NCBI RefSeq assembly: GCF_014899185.1 | Contig: NZ_CP045201.1 | Location: forward strand, 1,658,501 to 1,722,500 | Direction: 5' to 3' | DNA: 64,000 nucleotides | Source: Pseudooceanicola spongiae | GTDB taxonomy: Bacteria; Pseudomonadota; Alphaproteobacteria; Rhodobacterales; Rhodobacteraceae | In this document: positions 12,529-26,543 of the stretch, one piece after another | Position numbering within the stretch: the first letter of the stretch is position 1 | Layout of the letters: every line of letters begins with the position of its first letter | Translations under genes and position numbers: made by a program | Notes under the pieces: model-generated | What the model was told of the DNA's origin: nothing | Database searches by the model: none | What the model saw: the letters and a program-made list of their open reading frames with translations, nothing else

Positions 12529-13743
12529 ATGCGCAATCCGACCATGCCCCGCCCTTCGCCCCTCGCCTCGCTTGGCGCCGCGGCCCTGATCCTTCTACCG
12601 CTCGGCGCCTACGCGCAGGAGTTCAACGCAGCGCCCCCACATGCCGCAGGGCAGTCCCCGGCGTTCCAAGGCCAGACCCGCGCCCCGGTGCTTGCCGACA
12701 ACATCAGCCTGAACCGACAGGTCGTCGCCTCGAAGCTCGAGAGCCCTTGGGGCATGGACCAGCTGCCCGATGGGCGCTGGCTGGTGACGGAACGCCCCGG
12801 ACGGCTGCGGATCGTGGCGGCGGATGGCACTGTGTCGGGCGCAATCAAGGGCCTTCCCGAGGTCGACTCGCGCGATCAGGGTGGCCTGCTGGACGTCGCC
12901 ATCCGCGATGATTTCGAGCAGACGCGCCGCCTCTGGTGGAGCTTTTCCGAACCGCGCGGCAATGGCAAGAATGCCACCGCCGTCGCCACCGGCCTGCTGT
13001 CTGCCGATGAGCAAAGCCTTGAAGAGGTTGAAATTATCTTCCAGCAGCAGCCTGCCTGGGATTCGACCAAGCATTTCGGCTCGCGTCTGGTCTTTGACGG
13101 CGAAGGCGCGCTTTTCGTCACCACCGGAGAGCGCTCCAATCCCGAGCCGCGTCAACTGGCGCAGGACGTCGGCACGCACCTCGGCAAGGTGCTGCGTATC
13201 GACCCTATGGGCGGCGCGGCGCAGGGCAACCCGAAGATCCCCGGTGGCCTGCCCGAGATATGGTCCTATGGCCACCGCAACCTGCAATCGGCTGCACTCG
13301 GCCCCGACGGCGCGCTCTGGACTGTCGAGCATGGGCCAAAGGGCGGGGATGAGCTGAACCGTCCGCAGGCCGGTCTGAACTATGGCTGGCCGGTGATCAC
13401 CTACGGCGAGGATTACTCCGGGCGCCCGATGGGTCAGGGCCTGACCGAGCAGGAAGGCATGGAGCAGCCGGTCTATTATTGGGACCCGGTGATCGCGCCC
13501 TCTGGGATGGTATTCTACGATGGGGCGATGTTCGCGGACTGGCAGGGCAGCGCCCTGATCGGCGGGCTGGCCGGTCAGGCGCTGGTGCGGCTTGAGCTGG
13601 AGGACGGGCGCGTCACAGGCGAGGCACGCTATCTGCAAGGGCAAGGCCGGGTGCGCGACGTGGATCAGGCCGCTGACGGCGCGGTGATGCTGCTGATGGA
13701 CGGCGAAAACGGTGCACTGGTGCGGCTGACACCGGCCTCCTGA
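12529..13743 (+). CDS. Periplasmic PQQ-type sugar dehydrogenase (soluble glucose/aldose dehydrogenase family)
   Basis: A 404-residue secreted six-bladed propeller protein related to E. coli YliI/Asd, which oxidises aldose sugars with PQQ in the periplasm. A signal peptide (LGAAALILLPLGAYAQ) is clear when starting at ATG 12529, 7 bases after acgaggac. Family motifs are ESPWGMDQLPDGRWLVTERP, SRLVFDGEGALFVTTGER, YGHRNLQSAALGPDGALWTV, EHGPKGGDELN and NYGWPVITYGEDY. Asp/Lys/Arg positions expected around PQQ are present by eye, but cofactor use cannot be proven from this. No PQQ synthesis genes lie in the window. Confidence 0.9.
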   Translation: MRNPTMPRPSPLASLGAAALILLPLGAYAQEFNAAPPHAAGQSPAFQGQTRAPVLADNISLNRQVVASKLESPWGMDQLPDGRWLVTERPGRLRIVAADGTVSGAIKGLPEVDSRDQGGLLDVAIRDDFEQTRRLWWSFSEPRGNGKNATAVATGLLSADEQSLEEVEIIFQQQPAWDSTKHFGSRLVFDGEGALFVTTGERSNPEPRQLAQDVGTHLGKVLRIDPMGGAAQGNPKIPGGLPEIWSYGHRNLQSAALGPDGALWTVEHGPKGGDELNRPQAGLNYGWPVITYGEDYSGRPMGQGLTEQEGMEQPVYYWDPVIAPSGMVFYDGAMFADWQGSALIGGLAGQALVRLELEDGRVTGEARYLQGQGRVRDVDQAADGAVMLLMDGENGALVRLTPAS

Positions 13744-13762
13744 TCGGACCAAGACCTGCACG

Positions 13763-13797
13763 AGCCCACCGGAGCCACGCCTTCGGTGGGCTTTGTT
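13763..13797 (+). terminator. Terminator after the sugar dehydrogenase
   Basis: A 9-bp stem (agcccaccg / cggtgggct) with a 12-base loop, followed by ttgtta. It lies 20 bases after the stop codon. The T tract is short, so efficiency is uncertain. Confidence 0.72.
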
Positions 13798-14354
13798 ATG
13801 CCCTGACATCAAGGGCTTGGCAGACAAGCTGTTGACCTCTGACCCTTAAGCCACAAGGTTAACGACCAAAGGAGGATGTTTGACTTGGTAGTATCCTTAC
13901 GAACACAGCGCAGCATGAACGATCAGATCGACGTGGGTGATCCTGCGCCGGGCAAGATATCTTGCAGAGCTGCGCGCCAGTTCAACAGCATCCCACCCGC
14001 ACCTTTTCTGACCTCAACGCACAGACCGATCGATCCTCCGCTGACCTCAGTCAGGCGCAACACGCAGCCAGATCTGGCCGCGATCGAGATCTGACGCGCG
14101 CCATTTTCATGCCCGTATCTGGTGCCCTGATTTGACAGGGCAGCTGTTCGGGCGCTTCCCCACCACCGCCTGACGAAAGGCCCGTGCCATCTGGGCATAG
14201 CGCCGACGCGGTGGCCATTTTCCTCAAGATATGAAACACATGCAGGCCATACTCGCCGGGGCGATCAGCTCCGACACCGGACTTTCATATGTTCGCGAGA
14301 GGGTGGGACGTCCGAAATCGATCCGCCAGAACCTGCCGATGAAAGGACTATAGA
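13798..14354. other. Intergenic region with no recognised gene
   Basis: About 560 bases separate the sugar dehydrogenase from the ATP-grasp gene. A 72-codon frame (13876-14094) starts at an ATG that directly abuts aaaggagg, which is too close for normal initiation. A TTG at 13885 would be better spaced. Its translation resembles no family I know and is poor in the usual third-position GC pattern, so I do not call it a gene. The promoter for the ATP-grasp operon should lie here, and aaaggac precedes its ATG by 6 bases. Confidence 0.5.
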
Positions 14355-15581
14355 ATGACCGAGAAGAACCCTGACAAAGGCTATGTCGCCATCCTGGGCT
14401 GGAGCCTCAACGCCATCAATGCCGTCGACCAGTTCGACCGTCGCTATGTGGTTGTCGCACCGCCCTGGGCGCAGGACTATTGCGTGCAGAACGACATTCC
14501 CTTCGTGCCGTGGGATTTCGACCGCCTGAATGAACGCTCCTACGAGCTGGCGCAGCAGCTCAAGGAAATGGGCGTCGACGTGGCGATCCCGATCTTTGAG
14601 GAAACCGTGGAATGGGCCGGGGCGATCAACGCCGTGCTTCTGGACCAGCCGCGTCTGCTGGGTCAGGCGATGCTGTTCCGCGACAAATCGCTGATGAAGC
14701 GGCGCGCGCAGCTCGGCGGGATCCGCGTCGGTGTCTTTGAAGAGGCGCACGACCGCGGCGACGTGATCCGCTTTCTCAAGCGGGTCAACCAGACGCTGCT
14801 GAAGCTGGACGGCGACGTCAACGACCCGATCCACTTCAAGGCCTTCGACAAGTCCGGCACCGCCGGGCACCGGGTGATCCGCACGCCGGAAGACGTCGAC
14901 AACATCCCCGATGATGAGTTCCCCGCCCTGCTGGAGAGCCATCTGGATGGTTGGGAATTCGCTGTCGAGGCCTGGATCAAGAACGGCAAGATCCAGTTCC
15001 TGAACATCTCGGAATATGTCACGCTCGGCTATTCGGTCTTCGTGCCCGCCACGCCCGAGTTGGAGCAGCACCGTGCCCGCATCACCGAGCAGATCGAGAA
15101 ACTGATCGAGACCTTCGAAATTGACTTCGGCTTCATCCACCCGGAATACTTCCTGACCAGCGACAATACCCTGTACTTTGGCGAGGTCGCCTATCGTCCG
15201 CCCGGGTTCAACGCGCTGGAACTGATTGAGCGTGCCTATGGCTTCAACGGCTATCAGGGCCTTGTGGTGGCGTTTGATCCCAAGACCACGCAGGAAGAGC
15301 TGGACGCCTTCTTCCCAACCCCGATCAAGGATGCCAAGGGCCATGCCGGCTGCTTCGGTGTCTATCCGCGCCGCCGTGTGGTCAGCCGTCTGGAGATCCC
15401 CGAGGAAACGGCGAACCATCCGTACTTCGAGTTTCATGAGCTGGCCGATCCGCGTGAACAAAAGGTCGCCAAACGCTCCGCATTTGGGACACACTGGGGC
15501 CTGGCGTATTTCTTTGGCGAGGATGCGCATCAGCTGCGCGACCTGCTGAAGCGACAGGAAGAACTGGACTACTACATCTGA
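14355..15581 (+). CDS. ATP-grasp ligase-like protein
   Basis: A 408-residue protein with a pre-ATP-grasp Rossmann-like start (GYVAILGWSLNAINAV) and an ATP-grasp core. Visible landmarks are FRDKSLMKRRAQLGG, HFKAFDKSGTAGHR, FAVEAWIKNGKIQFLN and the metal-binding end FGFIHPEYF...YFGEVAYRPPGFNA (Glu277, Arg281). The family joins a carboxylate to an amine through an acyl phosphate. The overall look recalls amino-acid ligases of the carnosine-synthase/PurK-like branch. Its stop overlaps the next start by one base (TGATG), so it is tightly coupled to the cysteine-protease-like gene. The product is unknown. Peptide or amide bond formation is the reasonable guess. Confidence 0.85.
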   Translation: MTEKNPDKGYVAILGWSLNAINAVDQFDRRYVVVAPPWAQDYCVQNDIPFVPWDFDRLNERSYELAQQLKEMGVDVAIPIFEETVEWAGAINAVLLDQPRLLGQAMLFRDKSLMKRRAQLGGIRVGVFEEAHDRGDVIRFLKRVNQTLLKLDGDVNDPIHFKAFDKSGTAGHRVIRTPEDVDNIPDDEFPALLESHLDGWEFAVEAWIKNGKIQFLNISEYVTLGYSVFVPATPELEQHRARITEQIEKLIETFEIDFGFIHPEYFLTSDNTLYFGEVAYRPPGFNALELIERAYGFNGYQGLVVAFDPKTTQEELDAFFPTPIKDAKGHAGCFGVYPRRRVVSRLEIPEETANHPYFEFHELADPREQKVAKRSAFGTHWGLAYFFGEDAHQLRDLLKRQEELDYYI

Positions 15582-17605
15582 TGACCTCCTCAGGCACGGC
15601 CCCAGAGGGCCGCGAGATCAGCAATGACAGCCGGGCGCGTATCGCCCGGTTGTCAGACACGCTCAACGTCGCGATTGAGCGGCTTGAGCGTGCGCGCCCC
15701 TTTGCCAAGCTGCGCTTTCAACGGGCCGTGCTGGACGTCACGGCCCGCCTTTTGCAGACGGATGACGGGCTGGATGTGATCCGCGAACAGGCAACGCGCA
15801 TGGATGCGGCGGGGATTTTTGCGGGCTCCGACTGGGACCGTCCCGAGGCGCTGCTGCCACAGTTGGTCGGCGGCACTCTGGTCTCCGAGGATCCGGTTTT
15901 TGTGGCGTTGGAGGCGGTCAGTCTGGCGCGTTTTCTGGCCGTCGCCAATGGTGAGGGACGGCATGAGAACCTGCACAAGGACATGGCGCGCCATTTCCTG
16001 ACGCAGGTCATGGCACTGAACCTAAAGGATATTTTCGGGCAGTCTGACGAGGCGAGCCGCGCGCTTGGCGACCGGCAAGCGGTCAAGCGGCGGCTGCTGA
16101 ACTACATCTCCGACCACATCGGTCTGACGGATGTGCTGGGCGTGCTGGTGACCGAGATCTGGCGGCTGCTGGAGCAACGCTCGGTCCAAGTGGCCGTGGC
16201 CAAGGACATGATCGCGCAGATCGCCATCGCGCTGAATGAAAAGGGTACCGAGCCCGGCAGCGAACGGCTGGGCGCGGAGCGGCTGGTCAGTGCGCTGTTC
16301 GGCCCGACCGTTGCCTCGCTCTATGATCCCGGCGTCGAGGCCTATCTCGACCAGATCAGCCATTTCGACGAGGCGGCCCTGTCGCGTGAGGCGATGGGGT
16401 TTGCCCGCGCCATGCACGACACCGGCCTCGTCAGCGATTACCACGCCGCCTTTCTGGTCTGGGCGCTGGATTATGGCGACCGGCCTCTGGTGCCCGAGGC
16501 CCTTGGCCTCGGCACGACGGGTCTGGATTGCTGGCGTCACTACCGGCGCCTGATCGAGGATCTGATCCGCACCGCCGTTACCCCAGCCACACCGCAGGCC
16601 GCCTATGGTCTGACGATGCTGCTGGAGCGCGGCGTGCTGCATCACGCGCCCATGGTCCCTGCCCTGAACCGCGCCCTACAGCAAAAGGTGCAGGGCGCTG
16701 CACGGGAACGGCTGATGCTGGGCTTTGGCGAGGCTGTCCCGCCCGAGACGCATTTGCTGGCGGGTATCTTGCAGGTCATCGGTCAGCCGCTCGGCGTTGG
16801 TCAGGGGGCGAACCCGACCTGTCAGTCGGCCCGCGCGATTTCCATGTGGGCACTGATCGAGCCGGATTTCCTGCTGCATCTGATCACCCAGGCCTCCGAG
16901 TTCGACGCCGTGCTGATGCAGTTCGAGGGGGTGCCAATCAACTCCTCTGATCTGCCTGCCGGTCTGGCCGGGCTGGGGCCGATTGATGCCGATCCGGTGT
17001 CGGTGCTGTTGGTGTCGCACCTCGACCGTATCTATGCCGAGATGGGCCGCCTCTGCATTGGGCGCGAGGGCGATCCGCACCGCTGGATCAATCCGCAGTT
17101 CCATGGCTGGTGGGTGTCGCGCGACTGCGCCGTGGCGGTGGATGTCGCGACGGGAAAGCTGTCGCACTATGACCGCTTTCTGCGCCGCTTCTTTGCGACC
17201 TATCACCCGCATCACAACGGGGATCGCCCGGTCAGCCACCCGCAGCCCGCCGGCATCGCCGTGACCGATCCGAACGAGCACTTCGTCGGCTGGCACGCCA
17301 TCGCGATCCTGCGCGTCAGCGAGGATCAGGCGGGGGTGATGCGCGTCTATTTCTACAACCCCAACAACGACAGCGGTCAGGACTGGGGCGGCGGCGTTGT
17401 CGTCTCGACCAGCGGCAATGGTGAACGCTACGGCGAGGGCTCGCTGGAGTTCGGGCAGTTCCTGTCGCGCGTTTACCTCTTTCACGACGATCCTTTGCGC
17501 AGCACTGGCGCGGCGGATGACGTGCCCGAAGAAGCGCTTGCTCCGATCCACGCGCAGGCGGTGTCCAGTTGGGCGGCAGATCGGCTGCCCGAGGTGGAGG
17601 GCTGA
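15581..17605 (+). CDS. Large protein with a predicted papain/C39-like cysteine protease or transglutaminase site
   Basis: I do not recognise this 674-residue protein as a named family. The first 370 residues look all-helical with no membrane segment or signal peptide. The C-terminal part has what looks like a papain-fold catalytic set: Cys414 in GANPTCQSARAISMWAL, His572 in EHFVGWHAIAILRV, and Asn593 in VYFYNPNNDSG. A strand bearing His, followed about 21 residues later by N/D-P, is the spacing seen in C39 peptidases and related amidases/transglutaminases. With an ATP-grasp ligase upstream it could cleave or transfer the amide that the ligase makes. The active-site assignment is inference from motif order and spacing only. 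Confidence 0.7.
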   Translation: MTSSGTAPEGREISNDSRARIARLSDTLNVAIERLERARPFAKLRFQRAVLDVTARLLQTDDGLDVIREQATRMDAAGIFAGSDWDRPEALLPQLVGGTLVSEDPVFVALEAVSLARFLAVANGEGRHENLHKDMARHFLTQVMALNLKDIFGQSDEASRALGDRQAVKRRLLNYISDHIGLTDVLGVLVTEIWRLLEQRSVQVAVAKDMIAQIAIALNEKGTEPGSERLGAERLVSALFGPTVASLYDPGVEAYLDQISHFDEAALSREAMGFARAMHDTGLVSDYHAAFLVWALDYGDRPLVPEALGLGTTGLDCWRHYRRLIEDLIRTAVTPATPQAAYGLTMLLERGVLHHAPMVPALNRALQQKVQGAARERLMLGFGEAVPPETHLLAGILQVIGQPLGVGQGANPTCQSARAISMWALIEPDFLLHLITQASEFDAVLMQFEGVPINSSDLPAGLAGLGPIDADPVSVLLVSHLDRIYAEMGRLCIGREGDPHRWINPQFHGWWVSRDCAVAVDVATGKLSHYDRFLRRFFATYHPHHNGDRPVSHPQPAGIAVTDPNEHFVGWHAIAILRVSEDQAGVMRVYFYNPNNDSGQDWGGGVVVSTSGNGERYGEGSLEFGQFLSRVYLFHDDPLRSTGAADDVPEEALAPIHAQAVSSWAADRLPEVEG

Positions 17606-17676
17606 GGCGCGGACGCCTTCACCTGCGCGCCAAGATCCTGTAGGCCGCTGTCGAAACGTGACGACAGGAGTCCACC

Positions 17677-18357
17677 ATGCTGCCTTGGATCGAACTGGCC
17701 ACTGCGGTTGCACCGCAGGGCGACCGGCTGCACCTGTTCCGGCGTGGCGATGAATACTCGATCCGGCTCGAAGGCGGCAACGAGCTGATGAACAGCCGCC
17801 TCGGCGGATCTGAGGAGGCGCTGGCCACCTTTGCTCTGGAACGGCTGAGCGCGCGGCCCGCCCCCCGGGTGCTGATTGGTGGCCTCGGCATGGGTTTCAC
17901 CCTGCGCGCCACGCAAGCCGTTGCGCCCAAGGACGCCAAGCTGGTCGTGTCCGAAATCGTCCCCGAGCTGATCGGCTGGGCGCACGGGCATATGGCAACA
18001 GTCTTTGCAGACTGCCTGTCGGACCCGCGTGTCGAGGTGCGCACGGGCGATGTCGGGGCCGAAATTCGCGCCTCCGAAGGGGCGTTTGATGCGATCCTGC
18101 TGGACGTCGACAACGGGCCCGACGGCCTGACACGCACTGACAACGATGCGCTCTATTCCAACACCGGCCTGAAAAACGCCCGCCGCGCGCTGAGCATCGG
18201 TGGCGTTCTCTCGGTCTGGTCGGCAGAGCCGGATGACAGCTTTGCAAGGCGGTTGCAGCGCTGCGGGTTCGACGTCTTGGAACATAGCGTGCGCGCAGGG
18301 CGCTCCAAACGCGGTCCCAAGCACACGATCTGGACGGCGGTGCGCGCCAGCAAATAG
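17677..18357 (+). CDS. Spermidine-synthase-fold protein, likely SAM-dependent transferase
   Basis: A 226-residue Rossmann-fold protein similar to the C-terminal domain of spermidine synthase. Motif I reads VLIGGLGMGFTLRATQ, then an acidic strand end (LVVSEIVPEL), DAILLDVDNGPDG, and LKNARRALSIGGVLSVWS. True aminopropyltransferases have GGGDGG in motif I. Here the aspartate is absent (GGLGMG), and the gate-loop aspartate pattern is altered. Methyl transfer or another SAM-linked reaction is therefore at least as likely as polyamine synthesis. It follows the cysteine-site protein after 71 bases with its own aggag site, and probably belongs to the same transcript. Confidence 0.78.
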   Translation: MLPWIELATAVAPQGDRLHLFRRGDEYSIRLEGGNELMNSRLGGSEEALATFALERLSARPAPRVLIGGLGMGFTLRATQAVAPKDAKLVVSEIVPELIGWAHGHMATVFADCLSDPRVEVRTGDVGAEIRASEGAFDAILLDVDNGPDGLTRTDNDALYSNTGLKNARRALSIGGVLSVWSAEPDDSFARRLQRCGFDVLEHSVRAGRSKRGPKHTIWTAVRASK

Positions 18358-18366
18358 GCGCCGGCG

Positions 18367-18606
18367 TTACCCCGGCAGAGTGTCATTCAGCCAGACCACG
18401 GTGTCCCGGGCCGCACTGAGAGCATCCTCTGCCGTGGCAAACTCTGTCGCGCCATGGTGGCCGATGCTGTACCAGCCGCGCCCGTCTTCGGGATCGCGGC
18501 GAAACTCGTCGAACCCGTAAGTGCCGTCAGGCCGTAGGAAAATATCAACGCAGATGGTCTCACCATCCAGATTGACCGACCGGATCACCTTGTTGATATG
18601 CGCCAT
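18367..18606 (-). CDS. Conserved-looking small hypothetical protein
   Basis: A 79-residue soluble protein (MAHINKVIRSVNLDGETIC...). The ATG at 18606 fits. A longer in-frame extension to 19044 lies antisense to kdpF and kdpB and is rejected. It contains a mixed strand/helix pattern with YGFDEFRRDPEDGRGWYSIG and ends in a short amphipathic helix (AEDALSAARDTVVWLND). I do not recognise its function. It is convergent with the SAM-fold gene (9-base gap) and divergent from kdpF, whose control region lies between them. Confidence 0.75.
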   Translation of the reverse strand: MAHINKVIRSVNLDGETICVDIFLRPDGTYGFDEFRRDPEDGRGWYSIGHHGATEFATAEDALSAARDTVVWLNDTLPG

Positions 18607-18664
18607 GGAGCCCTGCCTGTCCGAACGGATTGTGTCGCCGCACCCTAGCAGGGTCGCGCCAGAC

Positions 18665-18682
18665 TTTATGCATTCTTTACGC
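18665..18682 (+). promoter_or_regulatory. Probable KdpE-binding site upstream of kdpFBACDE
   Basis: The 18 bases tttatgcattctttacgc match the core of the E. coli KdpE site (tttatactttttttacac, as I remember it) at 14 of 18 positions. They lie 95 bases before the kdpF start, in the expected place for an activator. This is an unusual T-rich patch in GC-rich DNA. KdpE itself is encoded at the end of the operon. Confidence 0.72.
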
Positions 18683-18777
18683 TCTGCCCCGCGGTTCCAC
18701 CGCGCGCCTTTATGCGGTTCACTGGCAAACAGCCTGTGACCGGTCCCCTTGGGGATCTTTAGCACAAGGCATTTGCC

Positions 18778-18867
18778 ATGACCTTCGATCTTGTTCTCGG
18801 TGCCATCGTGGCCGCCGGGCTTGCCGTCTACCTGCTGGCCGTTCTGGCCCGCCCGGAACGGTTCTGA
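18778..18867 (+). CDS. kdpF: Potassium-transporting ATPase small subunit KdpF
   Basis: A 29-residue single-helix membrane peptide: [20 protein letters not shown] followed by AVLARPERF. The sequence begins as a hydrophobic helix and ends with the RPERF tail typical of KdpF. It stabilises the KdpABC complex in the inner membrane. It is too short for most gene finders. The stop lies 10 bases before kdpB, whose ribosome site (gaggaggcgg) overlaps the end of kdpF. Confidence 0.93.
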
Positions 18868-18877
18868 GGAGGCGGAG

Positions 18878-20902
18878 ATGAGCGAGACCTCCTCAAAATC
18901 CCTGTTCACCCCGGCGCTGCTGGTGCCTGCTTGCCGAGATGCTGTACGCAAGCTGGACCCGCGGCAATTGTACCGCAACCCGGTGATGTTCACGACCGCC
19001 GTTGTGGCGTTGCTGGCCACGGTTCTGGCGCTCCACTCGGCCATGACCGGCGCGGGCGATGTCGGCTTTCAGGCGCAGCTGGTGTTCTGGCTGTGGCTGA
19101 CGGTGCTGTTCGGCAACTTTGCCGAGGCGCTGGCCGAGGGGCGTGGCAAGGCCCAGGCTGCGGCCCTGCGCTCCACCAAGGCCGAGCTGATGGGCAAGAA
19201 GCTCAGCGGTGCCAGCCATGAGATCGTCGCCGCCAGTACCCTGCGCGCAGGCGATCTGGTGCTGGTCGAGATGGGCGACCTGATCCCGGCCGACGGCGAG
19301 GTGGTGCAGGGTGTCGCCTCGGTCAACGAGGCCGCGATCACGGGCGAAAGTGCTCCGGTCATTCGCGAGGCGGGTGGCGACAGATCCGCCGTGACCGCCG
19401 GCACGCGGGTGATTTCCGACCAGATCACCGTCAGGGTGACGGTGGAGCCGGGTCAGGGCTTTCTCGACCGGATGATCGCTTTGGTTGAGGGCGCGGCGCG
19501 CGCCAAGACCCCGAACGAGGTGGCGCTGACCATTCTGCTGACCGGGCTGACGCTGATCTTCCTGATAGCGGTTGGCACCCTGCCCGCCTTTACCGCCTAT
19601 GCCGGGCAGTCGATCCCGGTGCCGGTGCTGGTGGCGCTGTTCGTGGCGCTGATCCCGACGACGATCTCGGCTCTGCTGTCGGCCATCGGCATCGCGGGCA
19701 TGGACCGTCTGGTGCGTTTCAACGTGCTGGCCAAGTCGGGCCGCGCTGTTGAAGCGGCGGGCGATATCGACGTGCTGCTGCTTGACAAGACCGGCACCAT
19801 CACGCTGGGCGACCGTCAGGCGAGCGAATTCGTCGCCCTGCCCGGTGTGGCGCAGGGCGATCTGGTCGAGGCCGCAATGCTGGCGAGCCTTGCCGATGAG
19901 ACTCCCGAGGGCCGCTCCATCGTCGCCCTTGCCCGCGCGCAAGGCATGGAGGCGACCGCCCCGACTGACGCAGAGGTGGTGCAGTTCACCGCCCAGACCC
20001 GCGTGTCGGGGATCGACGCCGATGGCCGCTCGATCCGCAAGGGAGCGGTCGATGCGCTGCTGAAACTGCACGACTTTGACGCCCGCGCCACGCAGGCCCT
20101 GCGCAGCGTGACCGACCGGATTGCCCGTGAGGGCGGCACGCCACTGGCGGTCAGTGACGGCACACGCCTGCTGGGGGCGATCCACCTCAAGGACATCATC
20201 AAGGCCGGGATCAAGGAGCGCTTTGCCGAGCTGCGCCACATGGGCATCCGCACGGTGATGATCACCGGCGACAACCCCCTGACGGCCGCAGCAATCGCCG
20301 CTGAATCCGGGGTCGATGACTTCCTCGCCGAGGCCACGCCCGAAGACAAGCTGGAGCTGATCCGCAAGGAGCAATCCGGGGGACGCCTTGTCGCGATGTG
20401 CGGCGATGGCACCAACGACGCGCCTGCCCTTGCGCAATCGGATGTCGGCGTGGCGATGAACACCGGCACGCAGGCCGCGCGCGAGGCGGGCAATATGGTC
20501 GACCTCGACAACAACCCGACCAAGCTGATCGAGATCGTCGGTCTGGGCAAGCAGCTGCTGATGACGCGCGGCGCGCTGACCACCTTCAGCATCGCCAATG
20601 ACGTGGCCAAGTACTTTGCCATCCTGCCCGCGATCTTTGTCGCGCTCTATCCCGGTCTCGGCGCGTTGAACGTGATGGGCCTGAACAGCCCCCAAAGCGC
20701 GATCCTGTCGGCGGTGATCTTCAACGCGCTGATCATTCCGTTCCTGGTGCCGCTGGCCCTGCGCGGCGTGCCCTACAAACCCCGCAGCGCCGCACGGCAG
20801 CTGATCGGCAACCTCACCCTCTATGGCGTGGGCGGCCTGATCGTTCCCTTCGTCGGCATCAAGGTGATCGACCTTGCCGTCGGCGCCCTCGGTCTGGCCT
20901 GA
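18878..20902 (+). CDS. kdpB: Potassium-transporting P-type ATPase catalytic subunit KdpB
   Basis: A 674-residue P-type ATPase that hydrolyses ATP to drive potassium uptake through KdpA. The ATG at 18878 is chosen. It follows gaggaggcgg and gives the normal N-terminus. Features are the actuator loop [13 protein letters not shown], membrane motif [19 protein letters not shown], phosphorylated Asp303 in [12 protein letters not shown], nucleotide-binding [11 protein letters not shown], and hinge [26 protein letters not shown]. The TGES serine whose phosphorylation inhibits the E. coli enzyme is conserved. It is unusual that kdpB precedes kdpA. In the standard order kdpA directly follows kdpF. Confidence 0.98.
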
Positions 20903-20967
20903 CCCGCTGATCCCCATTGCCGCCGCTCAGGCGCGCGGCTGATCCTATCCCCCTGAGGAGGTCCGAA

Positions 20968-22638
20968 ATGGACGCACTCTTTCTCGTCACACTCGTCGTT
21001 GGCACAACGGCACTGCTGTCATGGCCACTGGGCCAGTACATGGCCTGGGCGATGGACCCGGCCGAGGGTCGCGGCCCCACGGCGCTTTTCACCCGTATTT
21101 CTGGCGCGCGCGGCACTCAGGGTTGGCGCGGTTATGTGACCTCGCTGCTGGTGTTCAACCTTTTGATGTTCGCCGTCTGCTTTGCCCTTCTGGCCTTGCA
21201 GCAGGTCCTGCCGCTGAACCCCGATGCGAAAGGCGCGCTGAGCGCCGATCTGGTGTTCAACACCACCGCCTCCTTCACCACCAACACCAACCTGCAGCAC
21301 TATTCGGGTGAAGTCTCGATGAGCTACCTGTCGCAACTGGCGGCGCTGATGTGGTTGCAGTTCGTCTCGGCGGCGACGGGGATCGCGGCGCTGACGGCAT
21401 TGGCCCGGGGGATCGCGGGGCGTGGCAACATGGGGCATTTCCTGATCGATGTGCAGCGGGCAACTGTCCTGGTGTTGCTGCCGCTGGCGCTGATCGTGGG
21501 TCTCTACATGGCGCTGATGGGCGTGCCGATGACCCTGCAGGGCGCGGCAAAGGCACTCACGCTGGAGGGCGCGAGCCAGACCATCGCGCGCGGCCCGGTC
21601 GCGGCGTTTCTGGCGATCAAGCAGCTGGGCACCAATGGCGGTGGGTTCTTCGGCCCGAACGCGACACATCCGCTGGAAAATCCCAGCTTCTGGACCAACC
21701 TTGTGTCGATGATCGCGATCATCCTGATCCCCATGGCCTGCGTCTGGATGTTCGGCCGCATCATCGGGCGGCCCCGCCACGCGGCAGTAATTTTTTCCGT
21801 CATGGTGCTGTTTCTGATCGCCAAGATCGCCGGGTCGGTCTGGTTTGAAAGTGTGCCGACCTTCGCCCTGCGCGATCTTCCGGTTGCGCAGACCATCGGC
21901 AACCTTGAGGGCAAGGAGTTGCGTCTGGGCGCCACAACAGGCCCGCTCTGGGCGGTGCTGACCTCGTCGACTTCGAACGGATCTGTGGGCGCGATGCATG
22001 ACAGCCTCAACCCGCTGACCGGGCTGATGCCGATGATCAGGATGTGGTTGAACGCGACCTTCGGCGGTGTTGGCGTCGGCATGATCAACATGTTCGTCTA
22101 TATCATCGTCGCGGTATTTGTCGCGGGGATGATGGTCGGGCGCACGCCGGAATATCTCGGCCACCGGGTCGAGGCGCGCGAGGTCAAGCTGGCCGTGATG
22201 GTGCTCTTCTTCCACTCGCTGCTGATCCTTGGCGGCACGGCGCTGTTCGCGGCCACCAGCTGGGGTCAAGGCAGTACGCTGAACCCCGGCGCGCATGGGT
22301 TTTCCGAGATCCTGTACGAGTTCTCCTCGGCCAGCGCCAACAATGGCTCGGGCTTCGAGGGGCTGGGCGACAATACCGTGGCCTGGAACATCGCCACCGG
22401 CCTCGTGATGCTGCTGGGCCGCTATGTGCCGATCATCCTGCCGCTGGCCATCGTCGGTTCGTTCATGGCCAAGCGCCGCGCGGCGCAAAGCGCCGGGACG
22501 CTGGGGGTCGAGGACGCGACATTTGGCACCATGCTGGTGATCACCGTCGTGATCTTCGGTGCGCTGACCTTCCTGCCTGCCGCCGCCCTCGGCCCGCTTG
22601 CCGATCACTTTTCCCAGGTGCGCCGAGCGCCATTCTGA
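20968..22638 (+). CDS. kdpA: Potassium-transporting ATPase channel-like subunit KdpA
   Basis: A 556-residue membrane protein of the K+ channel superfamily (about ten helices) that selects and conducts potassium. The start at ATG 20968 follows ctgaggaggtccg. A frame beginning at 20917 adds 17 non-membrane residues and is rejected. Four selectivity-filter-like segments are visible: NTTASFTTNTNLQHYSG, GTNGGGFFGPNATHP, TSSTSNGSVGAMHDS and FSSASANNGSGFEG. Length and all four filters are complete, so the subunit should work. It lies 65 bases after kdpB and 12 bases before kdpC. Confidence 0.98.
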   Translation: MDALFLVTLVVGTTALLSWPLGQYMAWAMDPAEGRGPTALFTRISGARGTQGWRGYVTSLLVFNLLMFAVCFALLALQQVLPLNPDAKGALSADLVFNTTASFTTNTNLQHYSGEVSMSYLSQLAALMWLQFVSAATGIAALTALARGIAGRGNMGHFLIDVQRATVLVLLPLALIVGLYMALMGVPMTLQGAAKALTLEGASQTIARGPVAAFLAIKQLGTNGGGFFGPNATHPLENPSFWTNLVSMIAIILIPMACVWMFGRIIGRPRHAAVIFSVMVLFLIAKIAGSVWFESVPTFALRDLPVAQTIGNLEGKELRLGATTGPLWAVLTSSTSNGSVGAMHDSLNPLTGLMPMIRMWLNATFGGVGVGMINMFVYIIVAVFVAGMMVGRTPEYLGHRVEAREVKLAVMVLFFHSLLILGGTALFAATSWGQGSTLNPGAHGFSEILYEFSSASANNGSGFEGLGDNTVAWNIATGLVMLLGRYVPIILPLAIVGSFMAKRRAAQSAGTLGVEDATFGTMLVITVVIFGALTFLPAAALGPLADHFSQVRRAPF

Positions 22639-22650
22639 AGGATAACGAAC

Positions 22651-23199
22651 ATGAACATTCTTGTTTCCTCTCTGCGTGTGGTGGTAGCCTCGATGGGTCT
22701 GTGTGTCGTCGGATATACCGGGGTGATCCTGGGGGTAGCGCAGGCTGTGACGCCTGCGACCGCTGATGGCTCGCTGGTGGCCGATGCCTCGGGTCAGGTG
22801 GTCGGCAGCCGTCTGGTGGCGCAGGGTTTCAGTGATCCGCGCTATGTCTGGCCCCGCCCCTCGGCGGTGAACTATGACGCAGCGGCGGCGGGTGGGTCCA
22901 ACCTGTCGCCGGCAAACCCCGAAATCGCCACGCGAGCCAAGGCGATCATCGCAGCCTATGGCGTCGACGCTCCGATCCCCGCAGATCTGGTCACCGCTTC
23001 CGGCGCGGGCCTCGATCCGCATATCTCGCTGGCGGGGGCGCTGTTTCAGGTGCCCCGCGTTGCCAAGGCCCGTGGGATGGATGAGGACTCTGTGCGAGGC
23101 CTGATCACCCGTCTCGCCTTTGCCCCCGGCGGCCCGTTGACCCAGGACCGGATCGTCAACGTGCTGGAACTGAACCTGGCGCTGGATGCGGGGGCCTGA
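22651..23199 (+). CDS. kdpC: Potassium-transporting ATPase subunit KdpC
   Basis: A 182-residue subunit with one N-terminal membrane helix (SMGLCVVGYTGVILGVAQAV) and a periplasmic domain. Family marks are DASGQVVGSRLVAQGFSDPRYVWPRPSAV, YDAAAAGGSNLSPANP and LVTASGAGLDPHISL. It clamps KdpA and KdpB together and raises ATP affinity. The stop codon is directly followed by the kdpD start. Confidence 0.97.
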   Translation: MNILVSSLRVVVASMGLCVVGYTGVILGVAQAVTPATADGSLVADASGQVVGSRLVAQGFSDPRYVWPRPSAVNYDAAAAGGSNLSPANPEIATRAKAIIAAYGVDAPIPADLVTASGAGLDPHISLAGALFQVPRVAKARGMDEDSVRGLITRLAFAPGGPLTQDRIVNVLELNLALDAGA

Positions 23200-25860
23200 A
23201 TGAGCGACGCCGATCCCCGCCCCTCTCCTGATGCCTTGCTACGCGAGGCTGCCCGCGAATCCCGCGGTGCCCTGAAGATCTTTCTCGGGGCCGCGCCGGG
23301 GGTCGGGAAGACCTACGAGATGCTCTCGAAAGGGGCGGAGAAGCTGGCCGCGGGGGTGGATGTCGTCATTGGCGTCGTCGAAACCCATGGCCGCGCGGAA
23401 ACCGAAGCGCTGCTGGCACCGTTGGAGCTGATCCCGCGCCGCAGTGTCCCCTATCGCGGCCAGCACCTGACAGAGATGGACCTCGACGCGATCCTAGGGC
23501 GTGCCCCCGCGCTGGTGCTGGTGGATGAGCTCGCCCATACCAACAGTGCCGGATCGCGCCACCCCAAACGCTGGCAGGACATCGACGAGTTGCGCGACGC
23601 CGGGATCGATGTCTGGACCACGGTCAACATCCAGCATCTGGAAAGCCTCAACGATGTCGTCGGCGGGTTCACTCAGGTAAGGGTGCGCGAAACCGTGCCG
23701 GATCGGGTGTTCGAGGACGCCGATATCGAGGTCATCGACCTGTCCCCCGACGACCTGATCACCCGCCTGAAAGAGGGCAAGATCTATCTGCCGCAAGAAG
23801 CAGGGAGGGCACTGGAGAACTTCTTCACCAAGACCAAGCTCTCGGCCCTGCGCGAACTTGCGCTGCGGCGGGCGGCGCAGGCGGTCGATCAGCAGATGCT
23901 GGACCAGCTGCGCGCCAGTGGTGTCACGGGCACCTGGGCGGCAGGCGAGCGTGTGCTGGTCGCCGTCAGCGAGGAGCCGGGGTCTGCGGCCATCGTGCGC
24001 GCCGCAAAACGGCTGGCCGACGCCCTGCGCGCGCCCTGGACGGCGGTGCATGTCGAAACCCCGCGGGAGGGCGGCTTCAGTGAAGGACAGCGCCGCCGCG
24101 TCGGGCGCAACCTGGCGTTGGCGGCGGAACTGGGGGCGACGCTGGTCAGTGTGCCCGGCAGCACCGTCTCCGAGGTGCTGATCGAGCAGGTCGCAGAGAT
24201 GCGCGCCACACAACTGGTGATCGGCAAGAGCAATCGCAGCCGCTGGTTTCAGCTCTGGCATGGGTCTGTGGTGAACGACCTGCTGAAATCCGGGCGCGAC
24301 GTCGCGATCCACGTCATCCCGATGCCTGCGCGCGGGCGCGCCGTGCGCCCGGTCAAATCGCTTCCGGACGACCTGGCCTTTGGGCTTCTCGGGGCGGCCT
24401 CACTGGTTGGGATCACGGCCTTTCTCGGCAAGATCACCGAGGCATGGTTCGGCTATCAGGGGATCGACCTGCTGTTTCTGGTGCCGGTCATGGTCTCGGC
24501 ATTGCTGTTCGGGCGCTGGCCCAGCATCGTCTCGGCGCTGATGGCGGGGACGCTCTACAACTTTCTGTTCCTGCCCCCGGTGCTGACCTTCAACATCTAC
24601 GATCCGCGCAACGTCGTGACCGTGTTCATCCTGATCGCCGTCGGTCTGGTGACCAGCCAGCTGGCGGTACGTCTGCGTGTCGCCGCCCGGATGAGTGCCA
24701 AGAGCGCGCGCGAAAACGCGGCCCTTGCCCGGTTTGCCGCCCGCCTCGGCGCCCTCTCGGATGCAGAGGCCACGGGCCGCACGGTCTGCGAGGAGGTCGC
24801 AGGCTTGCTGTCGGTCGAGGCGATGATGCTGGCGCGTGGCCCGGATGGCGTGATCATCACCGCCAGCGAACCCGCCGCACTGACGCTGAACTTTACCGAC
24901 AGGGCCGCCGCAAAATGGGCGCTCGACAAGGGCGAGGCAACGGGCGTCGGCACCAATACCCTGACCGCCAGCGCCTGGCAGTTCCGCCCGCTGCGCACGG
25001 GCCTTGGCGTGCTGGGGGTGCTGGCGTTGCGCCGCCCCGATGGTTCGAAGCCGATCCCTGCCGACCAGGCCAGCCTCGCCGCCAGTCTGGTCGATCAGGC
25101 GGCGCTGGCCCATGAGCGGCTGAAGCTGGAAAACGACATGAGCGATCTGCGCGCCACCCGCGAACGCGACAGCCTGCGCGCGGCCTTGCTTGCCTCGCTC
25201 AGCCACGATCTTCGCACCCCGCTGACGGGCGTGATCGCGGCCGCCGAGGCGCTGGAGCCGGGCAATGATCCAGACGGCGCGCTGGTGCGCGCAATCCGGA
25301 CCGAGGCGCGCCGGCTCAACAGTTTTCTCGGCGATTTGCTGGATGTCACGCGGATCGAGGAGGGCGCGGTGCGCGTCAACCTGCAACCCATTGATCTGAC
25401 CGACGTGGTGCGCGGCACGCTGCACGATCTGCGCGGCCTGTTGCAGGACCGTAAGGTGATTGTCGATGTCGATGCCAACCTGCCCCTGCTGCGCGCCGAC
25501 CCGGTTCTGTTGCAGCATGCGCTGCTGAACCTTGTCGACAATGCCAACAAGTACTCAGCCCCCGACCAGCCGATCGAGATCTTCGCCAAGCGCCGACTTG
25601 GCTGGATGGCGCTGAGTGTGCGCGACCATGGCGCGGGCCTGCCAGAGGGCGCCGAGAAGATCGTCTTTGAGCGGTTTTTTCGCGGCATGGGGTCGGATCG
25701 CACGGGGGGCGCCGGCCTCGGCCTTGCCATCGTCAAGGGTTTCGCCGATGCCATGGGGCTTGAGGTCCGCGCGTCGAATGCAGGCGGCGGTGGTGCACGG
25801 TTCACCATCGCCTTCCCGCCCGGCGCCATTGTCGCGGATGTGGAAGGGGACGCCATATGA
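23200..25860 (+). CDS. kdpD: Potassium sensor histidine kinase KdpD
   Basis: An 886-residue sensor of low potassium or osmotic stress. The N-terminal KdpD domain has a Walker A-like GAAPGVGKTYEML and Walker B-like LVLVDELAHTN. A universal-stress-like domain follows, then four close membrane helices (about residues 390-495) with LLFLVPVMVSALLFGR and FNFLFLPP-like segments. A GAF-type region comes next, then the H-box with His669 (SLSHDLRTPLTGVIA), N-box (LLNLVDNANKYS) and G-box (GLGLAIVKGF). Full length matches E. coli KdpD. It is cotranscribed with kdpFBAC, and its stop overlaps the kdpE start by 4 bases. Confidence 0.97.
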   Translation: MSDADPRPSPDALLREAARESRGALKIFLGAAPGVGKTYEMLSKGAEKLAAGVDVVIGVVETHGRAETEALLAPLELIPRRSVPYRGQHLTEMDLDAILGRAPALVLVDELAHTNSAGSRHPKRWQDIDELRDAGIDVWTTVNIQHLESLNDVVGGFTQVRVRETVPDRVFEDADIEVIDLSPDDLITRLKEGKIYLPQEAGRALENFFTKTKLSALRELALRRAAQAVDQQMLDQLRASGVTGTWAAGERVLVAVSEEPGSAAIVRAAKRLADALRAPWTAVHVETPREGGFSEGQRRRVGRNLALAAELGATLVSVPGSTVSEVLIEQVAEMRATQLVIGKSNRSRWFQLWHGSVVNDLLKSGRDVAIHVIPMPARGRAVRPVKSLPDDLAFGLLGAASLVGITAFLGKITEAWFGYQGIDLLFLVPVMVSALLFGRWPSIVSALMAGTLYNFLFLPPVLTFNIYDPRNVVTVFILIAVGLVTSQLAVRLRVAARMSAKSARENAALARFAARLGALSDAEATGRTVCEEVAGLLSVEAMMLARGPDGVIITASEPAALTLNFTDRAAAKWALDKGEATGVGTNTLTASAWQFRPLRTGLGVLGVLALRRPDGSKPIPADQASLAASLVDQAALAHERLKLENDMSDLRATRERDSLRAALLASLSHDLRTPLTGVIAAAEALEPGNDPDGALVRAIRTEARRLNSFLGDLLDVTRIEEGAVRVNLQPIDLTDVVRGTLHDLRGLLQDRKVIVDVDANLPLLRADPVLLQHALLNLVDNANKYSAPDQPIEIFAKRRLGWMALSVRDHGAGLPEGAEKIVFERFFRGMGSDRTGGAGLGLAIVKGFADAMGLEVRASNAGGGGARFTIAFPPGAIVADVEGDAI

Positions 25861-26543
25861 CACGCACCAAGCCCAGAATTCTGGTGGTCGAGGATGAGCT
25901 TGCCATCCGCCGTCTGGTGCAGGCCGCGCTGACCCGGGGCGGCTATGATTCAGACATCGCCGAGACCGGCGCGGCTGGCCTGCGAAAGGCCGCGGGCTGT
26001 GATCTGGCGCTGCTGGATCTGGGGCTTCCGGATCGCGACGGGCTGGAGCTGATCGGCCCTTTGCGCGATGCAGGCCTCTCGGTGATCATCCTGACCGCGC
26101 GCGAACAGACGGAGGAAAAGGTCGCTGCGCTGGACCTTGGCGCCGATGACTATGTCACCAAACCCTTTGATACAGATGAGCTTTTGGCGCGCGTGCGTTC
26201 CTGTCTGAGGCGGCGCGCTGCGCAAAGCGGCGTGTCGGGCAAGATTGCCACGGGCGCATTGCGAATTGATCTCGACGCGCATAGCGTCACCCGGGATGGC
26301 GTGCCGGTGAAACTGACACCGAAGGAGTTCGCTCTGCTGGAACTGCTGGCGGGCAATGCGGGCAAGGTACTGACCCATGCGCATCTGCTGGGCACCGTCT
26401 GGGGCCCGGCGCATGTCGAGAGCGTCGAGTATCTGCGCGTGGCCATTCGCAGCCTGCGGGCAAAATTGGAAAAGGACCCCGGAGACCCGCGCTTGCTGAT
26501 CAACGAACCCGGGGTCGGCTACAGGCTGGTCGATCAGGAGTGA
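25857..26543 (+). CDS. kdpE: Response regulator KdpE
   Basis: A 228-residue OmpR-family activator of the kdp operon. The receiver has E-D at the start (ILVVEDELAIRRLV), phospho-acceptor Asp54 in LALLDLGLPDRDGLELI and lysine in YVTKPFD. The winged helix includes KLTPKEFALLELL and the KdpE-typical TVWGPAHVESVEYLRV, ending INEPGVGYRLVDQE. Its likely target is the T-rich site at 18665-18682 upstream of kdpF. Confidence 0.97.
   Translation: MTRTKPRILVVEDELAIRRLVQAALTRGGYDSDIAETGAAGLRKAAGCDLALLDLGLPDRDGLELIGPLRDAGLSVIILTAREQTEEKVAALDLGADDYVTKPFDTDELLARVRSCLRRRAAQSGVSGKIATGALRIDLDAHSVTRDGVPVKLTPKEFALLELLAGNAGKVLTHAHLLGTVWGPAHVESVEYLRVAIRSLRAKLEKDPGDPRLLINEPGVGYRLVDQE

What the first reader, a model, noticed from the sequence alone, without database searches (positions are those of the whole stretch)
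14355..18357. Three-gene set: ATP-grasp ligase, papain/C39-like protein, spermidine-synthase-fold protein
Seen: the first two genes overlap by one base, and the third follows after 71 bases with its own ribosome site. Known: ATP-grasp enzymes make amide bonds, and papain-fold enzymes cut or transfer them. In E. coli, glutathionylspermidine synthetase/amidase joins these two activities around a polyamine. Inferred: this set could make and unmake an amide-linked small molecule or tag a protein, with a SAM-linked step. I know of no described system with this combination.
Basis: partly seen in the sequence, partly recalled or inferred. Interest (0 to 1): 0.75.

Follow-up and report, generated by a model that had tools for sequence, protein, structure and literature searches.

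The report
Mobile amide-ligase and papain-like pair
Two adjacent genes in a marine-type bacterium encode a strongly conserved pair of enzymes of unknown job, one that looks able to build amide bonds and one that looks able to cut or transfer them, with a newly noticed folded RNA leader in front; the third gene first thought to belong with them does not.

Summary
P1 (14355-15581) is an ATP-grasp ligase: its model's best PDB matches are the L-amino-acid ligases RizA and BL00235 and its ATP-grasp residues are invariant in 47 of 47 distinct near-full-length sequences. P2 (15581-17605) matches no Pfam or NCBIfam family at E<=1; it has a helical N-terminal part and a papain-like residue set (Gln408, Cys414, His572, Asn593) invariant in 48 of 48. 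An intact P1 lies beside P2 in 34 of 37 contexts, in three of them divergently. The pair is sparse (19 of 394 family genomes) and reaches Halomonas. The spermidine-synthase-like P3 is beside it only in the window. Unnoticed before: a structured RNA leader (14238-14339) directly upstream of P1 in 10 loci, with covariation and no Rfam match. Best reading: a mobile two-enzyme module that makes and processes an amide-linked, dipeptide-like compound; the substrate is unknown.

The parts
14238..14339 (+). structured RNA leader (outer helix GCAGG/CCTGC, a three-way junction, a 3' hairpin), ending 15 bases before the P1 start
   Evidence: Not in the training set of model R1, yet found at 32.4 bits, E 1.4e-6 in 662 kb; best match of the whole genome, E 9.6e-6, the next at 0.49; its own minimum-energy fold has the same branching, though its energy is not unusual (z -0.89). 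No Rfam match at the leader with E<=5.
14355..15581 (+). P1, 408 aa, ATP-grasp ligase, L-amino-acid-ligase-like
   Evidence: Foldseek RizA 4wd3 E 7.7e-11, BL00235 3vot E 1.1e-9, with low TM-scores (0.34) from a low-confidence model; K162, E194, E201, E205, E264, E277, R281 in 47/47 distinct sequences
14838..14840 (+). codon of Lys162, ATP-binding lysine by alignment
   Evidence: aligned to 4dim; invariant
15144..15197 (+). codons Glu264 to Arg281, with Glu264, Glu277 and Arg281 of the Mg/ATP site
   Evidence: aligned to 3vot; invariant; roles recalled
15581..17605 (+). P2, 674 aa, helical N-terminal part (about 12-401) and papain-like C-terminal part (about 405-640)
   Evidence: model mean pLDDT 70.7; fold matches; no Pfam, NCBIfam or PADLOC family at E<=1, no PHROG at E<=0.1
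16802..16822 (+). codons Gln408 to Cys414, putative oxyanion Gln and catalytic Cys
   Evidence: invariant 48/48; a helix starts at 412 in the model, but 403-414 have pLDDT under 50
17294..17296 (+). codon of His572, putative catalytic His, in strand 568-581
17357..17359 (+). codon of Asn593, putative third catalytic residue, just after strand 587-592

Best explanation
P1 and P2 are a self-contained, horizontally moving two-enzyme module. Shown: P1 is an ATP-grasp-type protein with its catalytic residues kept; P2 carries an invariant papain-type residue set; the two genes stay side by side while the genes around them change. Inferred: P1 activates a carboxylate as an acyl phosphate and joins it to an amine, making a dipeptide-like compound, as RizA and BL00235 do; P2 attacks that amide through Cys414 and passes the acyl group to water (hydrolysis) or to a second amine (transfer). 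Together they set the level of, or convert, one intracellular amide-linked metabolite. In one clade of Rhodobacteraceae the operon begins with a folded RNA leader that probably controls its expression.
For: P1 fold and residues. P2 residues and weak fold matches. Intact P1 beside P2 in 34 of 37 contexts, three of them divergent (L063, L065, L068), which argues for functional linkage beyond an inherited operon. The 9 P1-positive of 248 family genomes are all P2-positive. No other gene recurs at a fixed place beside the pair across the groups in the clusters listed. Pairwise identities of P1 and P2 correlate, r 0.81 over 44 loci, 0 of 2000 permutations as high, as common descent alone would also give. 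P1 is the more constrained (median identity 78% against 54%).
Confidence: 0.45

Rival explanations
1. A protein-modification pair: P1 adds an amino acid or small group to a protein and P2 removes it, as RimK and RimB do with glutamate on ribosomal protein RpsF; the helical part of P2 binds the target.
For: RimK and RimB are a ligase/protease pair whose separate genes are scattered without regard to host phylogeny (PMC11957791, passages read). The large helical part of P2 would suit protein binding.
Against: P1 has no RimK match in Pfam at E<=1, and the 50 rows shown are amino-acid ligases, PurK/PurD-type enzymes and biotin carboxylases. No conserved target gene lies nearby.
Confidence: 0.2
2. 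A conflict or stress module: a patchy mobile cassette acting on an invader or a stressed ribosome, with the DUF3892-like protein as an optional RNA sensor.
For: Patchy distribution, exchange between classes, damaged copies (L017, L072). DUF3892 is said to have a fold also seen in double-stranded-RNA-binding domains and to be fused to predicted conflict effectors (PMC12419801, passages read).
Against: No PADLOC match at E<=1, no P2 relative in 50,697 phage records, none confirmed in viral contigs. DUF3892-like gene in only 5 of 35 pair genomes tested. High conservation of P1 is not typical of arms races (inference).
Confidence: 0.15
3. A peptide-modifying or tagging system in which the small DUF3892-like protein is the substrate of P1 and is processed by P2.
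For: The DUF3892-like gene lies just upstream of P1 in 9 of 15 titled Rhodobacteraceae loci, with alike C-termini by eye, and in 60 relatives it was found only in two pair-bearing genomes.
Against: The window's own genome has no copy, nor have 30 of 35 pair genomes tested (E limits 1e-5 and 1e-3). No graspetide-type family among the matches of P1 at E<=1.
Confidence: 0.08
4. A true three-gene amide/polyamine set that includes the spermidine-synthase-like P3.
For: Same strand, 71-base gap in the window.
Against: P3 is beside the pair only in the window and is distributed independently of it.
Confidence: 0.02

Closest known systems
L-amino-acid ligases RizA, BL00235, BacD (ATP-grasp dipeptide ligases)
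   Same: best fold matches of P1 and aligned ATP-grasp residues
   Different: 13-16% identity in the Foldseek alignments; P1 is kept beside a papain-like protein; its substrate is unknown
Glutathionylspermidine synthetase/amidase (recalled)
   Same: joins an ATP-grasp-type ligase and a papain-fold cysteine amidase
   Different: one fused protein in E. coli; neither of its Pfam domains appears among the matches of P1 or P2 at E<=1
RimK with RimB (PMC11957791, passages)
   Same: ATP-grasp ligase plus protease as a horizontally spread pair
   Different: [quoted passage not shown] P2 has a cysteine-type residue set and a large helical part
Papain-like cysteine proteinase superfamily (PMC10318531, passages)
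   Same: Gln, Cys, His, Asn in that order; first fold matches are staphopain and Pd_dinase-type proteases
   Different: P2 matches no Pfam family at E<=1 and adds about 400 residues of helices
Orphan riboswitch candidates such as yjdF (PMC4793209, abstract start in a listing)
   Same: structured leader tied to one kind of gene of unknown function
   Different: only 10 loci with E<0.003 here; no ligand and no switching shown

Membership tests
ATP-grasp superfamily | ATP-grasp fold | tested here: met
   [not shown]
ATP-grasp superfamily | ATP lysine, Mg-binding Glu pair and following Arg (roles recalled) | tested here: met
   K162, E264, E277, R281 in 47/47, aligned to 4dim and 3vot
Pfam ATP-grasp_4 (PF13535) | curated score cut-off | tested here: not met
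   23.5 bits against 27; so filed under the superfamily, not this family
L-amino-acid ligase (functional class) | ATP-dependent dipeptide formation | not testable with these tools
   needs an enzyme assay
Papain-like cysteine proteinases | Gln/Cys/His/Asn in that order, Cys at the start of a helix, His in a strand | tested here: met
   48/48; helix 412-426, strands 568-581 and 587-592
Papain-like cysteine proteinases | papain-like fold | tested here: inconclusive
   [not shown]
Peptidase C39 | profile match to the family | tested here: not met
   no Pfam family at E<=1 for P2
Glutathionylspermidine synthetase/amidase | profile matches to its synthetase and CHAP domains | tested here: not met
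   no such Pfam match for P1 or P2 at E<=1
RimK/RimB | RimK profile match of the ligase | tested here: not met
   P1's only Pfam match at E<=1 is PF13535
Spermidine synthase (P3) | NCBIfam equivalog cut-off | tested here: not met
   32 bits against 472 for NF002956; 17.1 against 249.55 for speE
Riboswitch (leader) | conserved structured 5' leader with covariation | tested here: met
   the alignment was fitted to the model, and that its 5' end is the transcript start is assumed
Riboswitch (leader) | direct ligand binding and control of expression | not testable with these tools
   needs in-line probing and reporter assays
Known Rfam family (leader) | covariance-model match | tested here: not met
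   no match at the leader with E<=5 in window 13700-18700, nor with E<=2 in L010, L016, L019, L021
DUF3892 (small gene upstream of P1 in other loci) | Pfam cut-off | tested here: met
   L009 copy 23.1 bits against 22.3; the L008 copy, 15.5 bits, falls under it; the other copies were not scanned

The most novel reading that the evidence does not exclude
A new small-molecule pathway reduced to two enzymes: an amide ligase and a papain-type acyl transferase or hydrolase that make and turn over a metabolite not yet described, whose level is read in one clade by a new riboswitch class in the operon's leader.
Probability: 0.18. Interest if true: 0.82.

Novelty: new variant of a known kind. Interest (0 to 1): 0.55.

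Why it matters
It defines a narrow, testable system: two enzymes that travel together between classes of bacteria without any other fixed neighbour, one of them papain-like but outside every Pfam family, and an operon-specific RNA leader. If the leader binds the product or substrate, a simple RNA binding assay could hand over the missing metabolite, as was done for other orphan riboswitches.

Tried and rejected
P3 as part of the system: rejected. Phage or viral origin: no match to P2 in phages; of 51 stretches in viral contigs that held a pattern none was confirmed. Known defence system: no PADLOC match at E<=1. A further conserved gene: in the clusters listed, besides frames that overlap the pair itself, ABC-transporter ATPases recur (11 loci) but at scattered places and on both strands, Halomonas-like loci share their own surroundings, and the only recurrent small gene at a fixed place is the optional DUF3892-like one. 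Insertion at tRNA genes: 3 of 31 loci scanned have a tRNA in the stretch, one of them directly beside the pair (L019), so rejected. Pairing of the leader's third hairpin loop with the Shine-Dalgarno region: looked promising by eye in the window, but no better than shuffled loops in the 10 leaders tested (fraction of shuffles at least as good 0.09 to 0.96): rejected. The leader in pair loci of other classes: no match with E<=2 in the eight such loci searched, no comparable block in an alignment of nine. The leader in L008, L011, L020: best scores on the P1 strand 6.5, 4.3 and 10.5 bits without filters, so not counted; L017 has 16.7 bits (E 0.4) just before its P1 fragment, not counted. Leader matches in genomes without the pair (G047, G012, G046, G016; E 2.5e-4 to 0.0084): aligned; only the best, G047, was looked at in context and lies antisense just after a transporter-like reading frame; I judge all four chance, which is not proven. 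Promoter scan: nothing at the leader. The 2009 amidoligase survey by Iyer and colleagues, which may describe related pairs, was not held, so I cannot exclude that this pair is mentioned there. Searches for a description of the pair, the leader or DUF3892; no description of the pair or of this leader in the listings and the passages read. Rows left out: structure alignments A3 and A4 leave out L017 in both, L020 in A3 and L014 in A4; one search leaves out matches under 380 (P1) or 560 (P2) aligned residues, thus the broken copies, and exact duplicates; one search uses only loci with both proteins. The P2 frames of L020 and L022 leave the conserved frame near the C-terminus.
Full report
WHAT IS THERE. 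The three reading frames are as described: P1 14355-15581 (408 aa), P2 15581-17605 (674 aa) overlapping P1 by one base, and P3 17677-18357 (226 aa) after 71 bases. The window lies in a 4.37 Mb single-contig genome. The titled loci most like it are Rhodobacteraceae, the closest being Pseudooceanicola sediminis, with P1 96% and P2 88% identical.

THE PAIR IS REAL, THE TRIO IS NOT. In the first 21 loci (L001-L021, some of them the same contig met twice) P1 lies next to P2 in all, in L017 as a fragment; P3 is present only in the window's own locus. In 37 contexts (window, L007-L022, L057-L076) an intact P1 lies beside P2 in 34 (clustering). The exceptions: L017, where P1 residue 124 is followed at once by the P2 frame from residue 155; L072, where P1 is in pieces; L067, where no P1 lies within 8 kb. 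In L063, L065 and L068 the two genes are still neighbours but divergently transcribed. The genes around the pair differ from locus to locus in Rhodobacteraceae, apart from L007, which shares several upstream genes with the window; the Halomonas-like loci share their own surroundings. P3 occurs in 9 of 40 relatives, own genome included, without regard to the pair.

DISTRIBUTION. P2 was found in 6 of 60 relatives, 19 of 394 genomes of the family, 4 of 385 of the class and 11 of 398 of the phylum; each count includes the own genome, and the samples overlap in part. Three genomes of one family outside the class (f205) carry two P2 copies each. One named gammaproteobacterium, Halomonas sp. PA16-9, has the pair. 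P1 searched in 248 family genomes gave 9 positives, all of them among the P2-positive genomes; that the 248 are a subset of the 394 I infer from the handles. No match of P2 in phage records; none confirmed in viral contigs. In the 37 contexts P2 is 46-88% identical to the window's; no more distant relative was reached, and genomes of other phyla were not sampled by the genome search.

EVOLUTION OF THE PAIR. Pairwise identities of P1 and P2 correlate (r 0.81, 44 loci, 0 of 2000 permutations as high), which common descent would also give. P1 is far more conserved (median 78% against 54%). Against strict co-inheritance: in L003 and L006, from the window's own genus, P2 is of the local type (up to 78% identity to other Rhodobacteraceae) while P1 is about 89-91% identical to that of L063 and L065, from f205 genomes outside the class, whose P2 is only 44-46% identical. 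So P1 appears to have been exchanged between classes, and the partners look interchangeable. I take this to favour a shared substrate over a tightly matched complex.

THE LEADER. Aligning the DNA upstream of P1 showed a conserved block that does not continue further upstream. Single-sequence folds of L014, L016, L019, L021 and the window give the same branching, while L010, L012 and L013 fold partly or wholly otherwise; energy z-scores are mixed (-2.7 to +0.6). RNAalifold on a plain MAFFT alignment of 13 gives 15 pairs, 8 with a double change. A covariance model from four sequences finds, beyond them, L015, L010, L021, the window (32.4 bits), L009 and L012 at E<0.003 in 662 kb, all directly upstream of P1. 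In the model-fitted alignment of these 10, 93.5% of cells pair and 8 of 25 pairs have a double change against 2.7 in shuffles (0 of 500 reach it); further pair types are less striking (23 against 20.2, 16 of 500). Fitting and relatedness inflate this, but sliding the helices by 1-3 columns drops pairing to 32-53%. A rebuilt model adds L007 weakly (24 bits). In 60 relatives the four strong matches are all in pair genomes, 4 of the 6; the two without it, G001 and G021, are those with the exchanged P1. Four weak matches (E 2.5e-4 to 0.0084) lie in genomes without the pair. In the own genome it is the only good match. Rfam has no match. So the leader is tied to this operon and limited to one clade. 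That it is a riboswitch is a hypothesis.

A THIRD, OPTIONAL GENE. An 86-residue protein, in L009 above the DUF3892 cut-off, is encoded just upstream of P1 in 9 of 15 titled Rhodobacteraceae loci. In 60 relatives it was found in 2, both pair-bearing. Of 36 pair genomes found, 35 were tested (six and thirty, the own genome in both), and 5 have it; in one (G401) it lies on another contig than the pair. The window's genome lacks it. DUF3892 is described as having a fold also seen in dsRNA-binding domains (PMC12419801, passages); a link to the leader is a mere possibility.

MECHANISM. Most likely P1 makes an amide between small molecules and P2 hydrolyses it or transfers its acyl part. RimK/RimB (passages) and, from memory, glutathionylspermidine synthetase/amidase and the cyanophycin enzymes show that ligase-plus-peptidase pairs exist. 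Nothing here identifies the substrate; hydrolysis against transfer, and small molecule against protein, are open.

NOVELTY. I saw no description of the pair or the leader in the searches; the library omits most subscription papers, and the 2009 amidoligase survey is not held. I rate it a new variant of a known kind (ligase/peptidase pairs) with a papain-like protein outside Pfam and a new structured leader.

Noticed in passing
14238-14339: Conserved folded RNA leader upstream of P1, outside the finding's coordinates, with no Rfam match.
   Followed up: yes
L009 6271-6543 and 8 other titled loci: Small DUF3892-like gene just upstream of P1; in 60 relatives found only in pair-bearing genomes, and missing from the window's genome.
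   Followed up: yes
L003, L006 (G021, G001): P1 appears exchanged for a type about 90% identical to that of genomes of another class, while P2 stayed local.
   Followed up: partly
L017 7666-9581; L072; L067: Naturally damaged or incomplete versions: a deletion between P1 and P2, a P1 in pieces, and a P2 without P1 nearby.
   Followed up: partly
G401 C18:3293-3535 (L114): DUF3892-like gene in a pair-bearing genome but on another contig than the pair.
   Followed up: no
18791-26543: Potassium-uptake operon that by reading looks like kdpB-kdpA-kdpC-kdpD-kdpE, with B before A, unlike the usual order (names recalled, not searched).
   Followed up: no
L070, about 3.9 kb after the P2 start: Reading frame with a GVELEF stretch that recalls amidoligase proteins (recalled, not searched), noticed near the pair in this one locus.
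   Followed up: no
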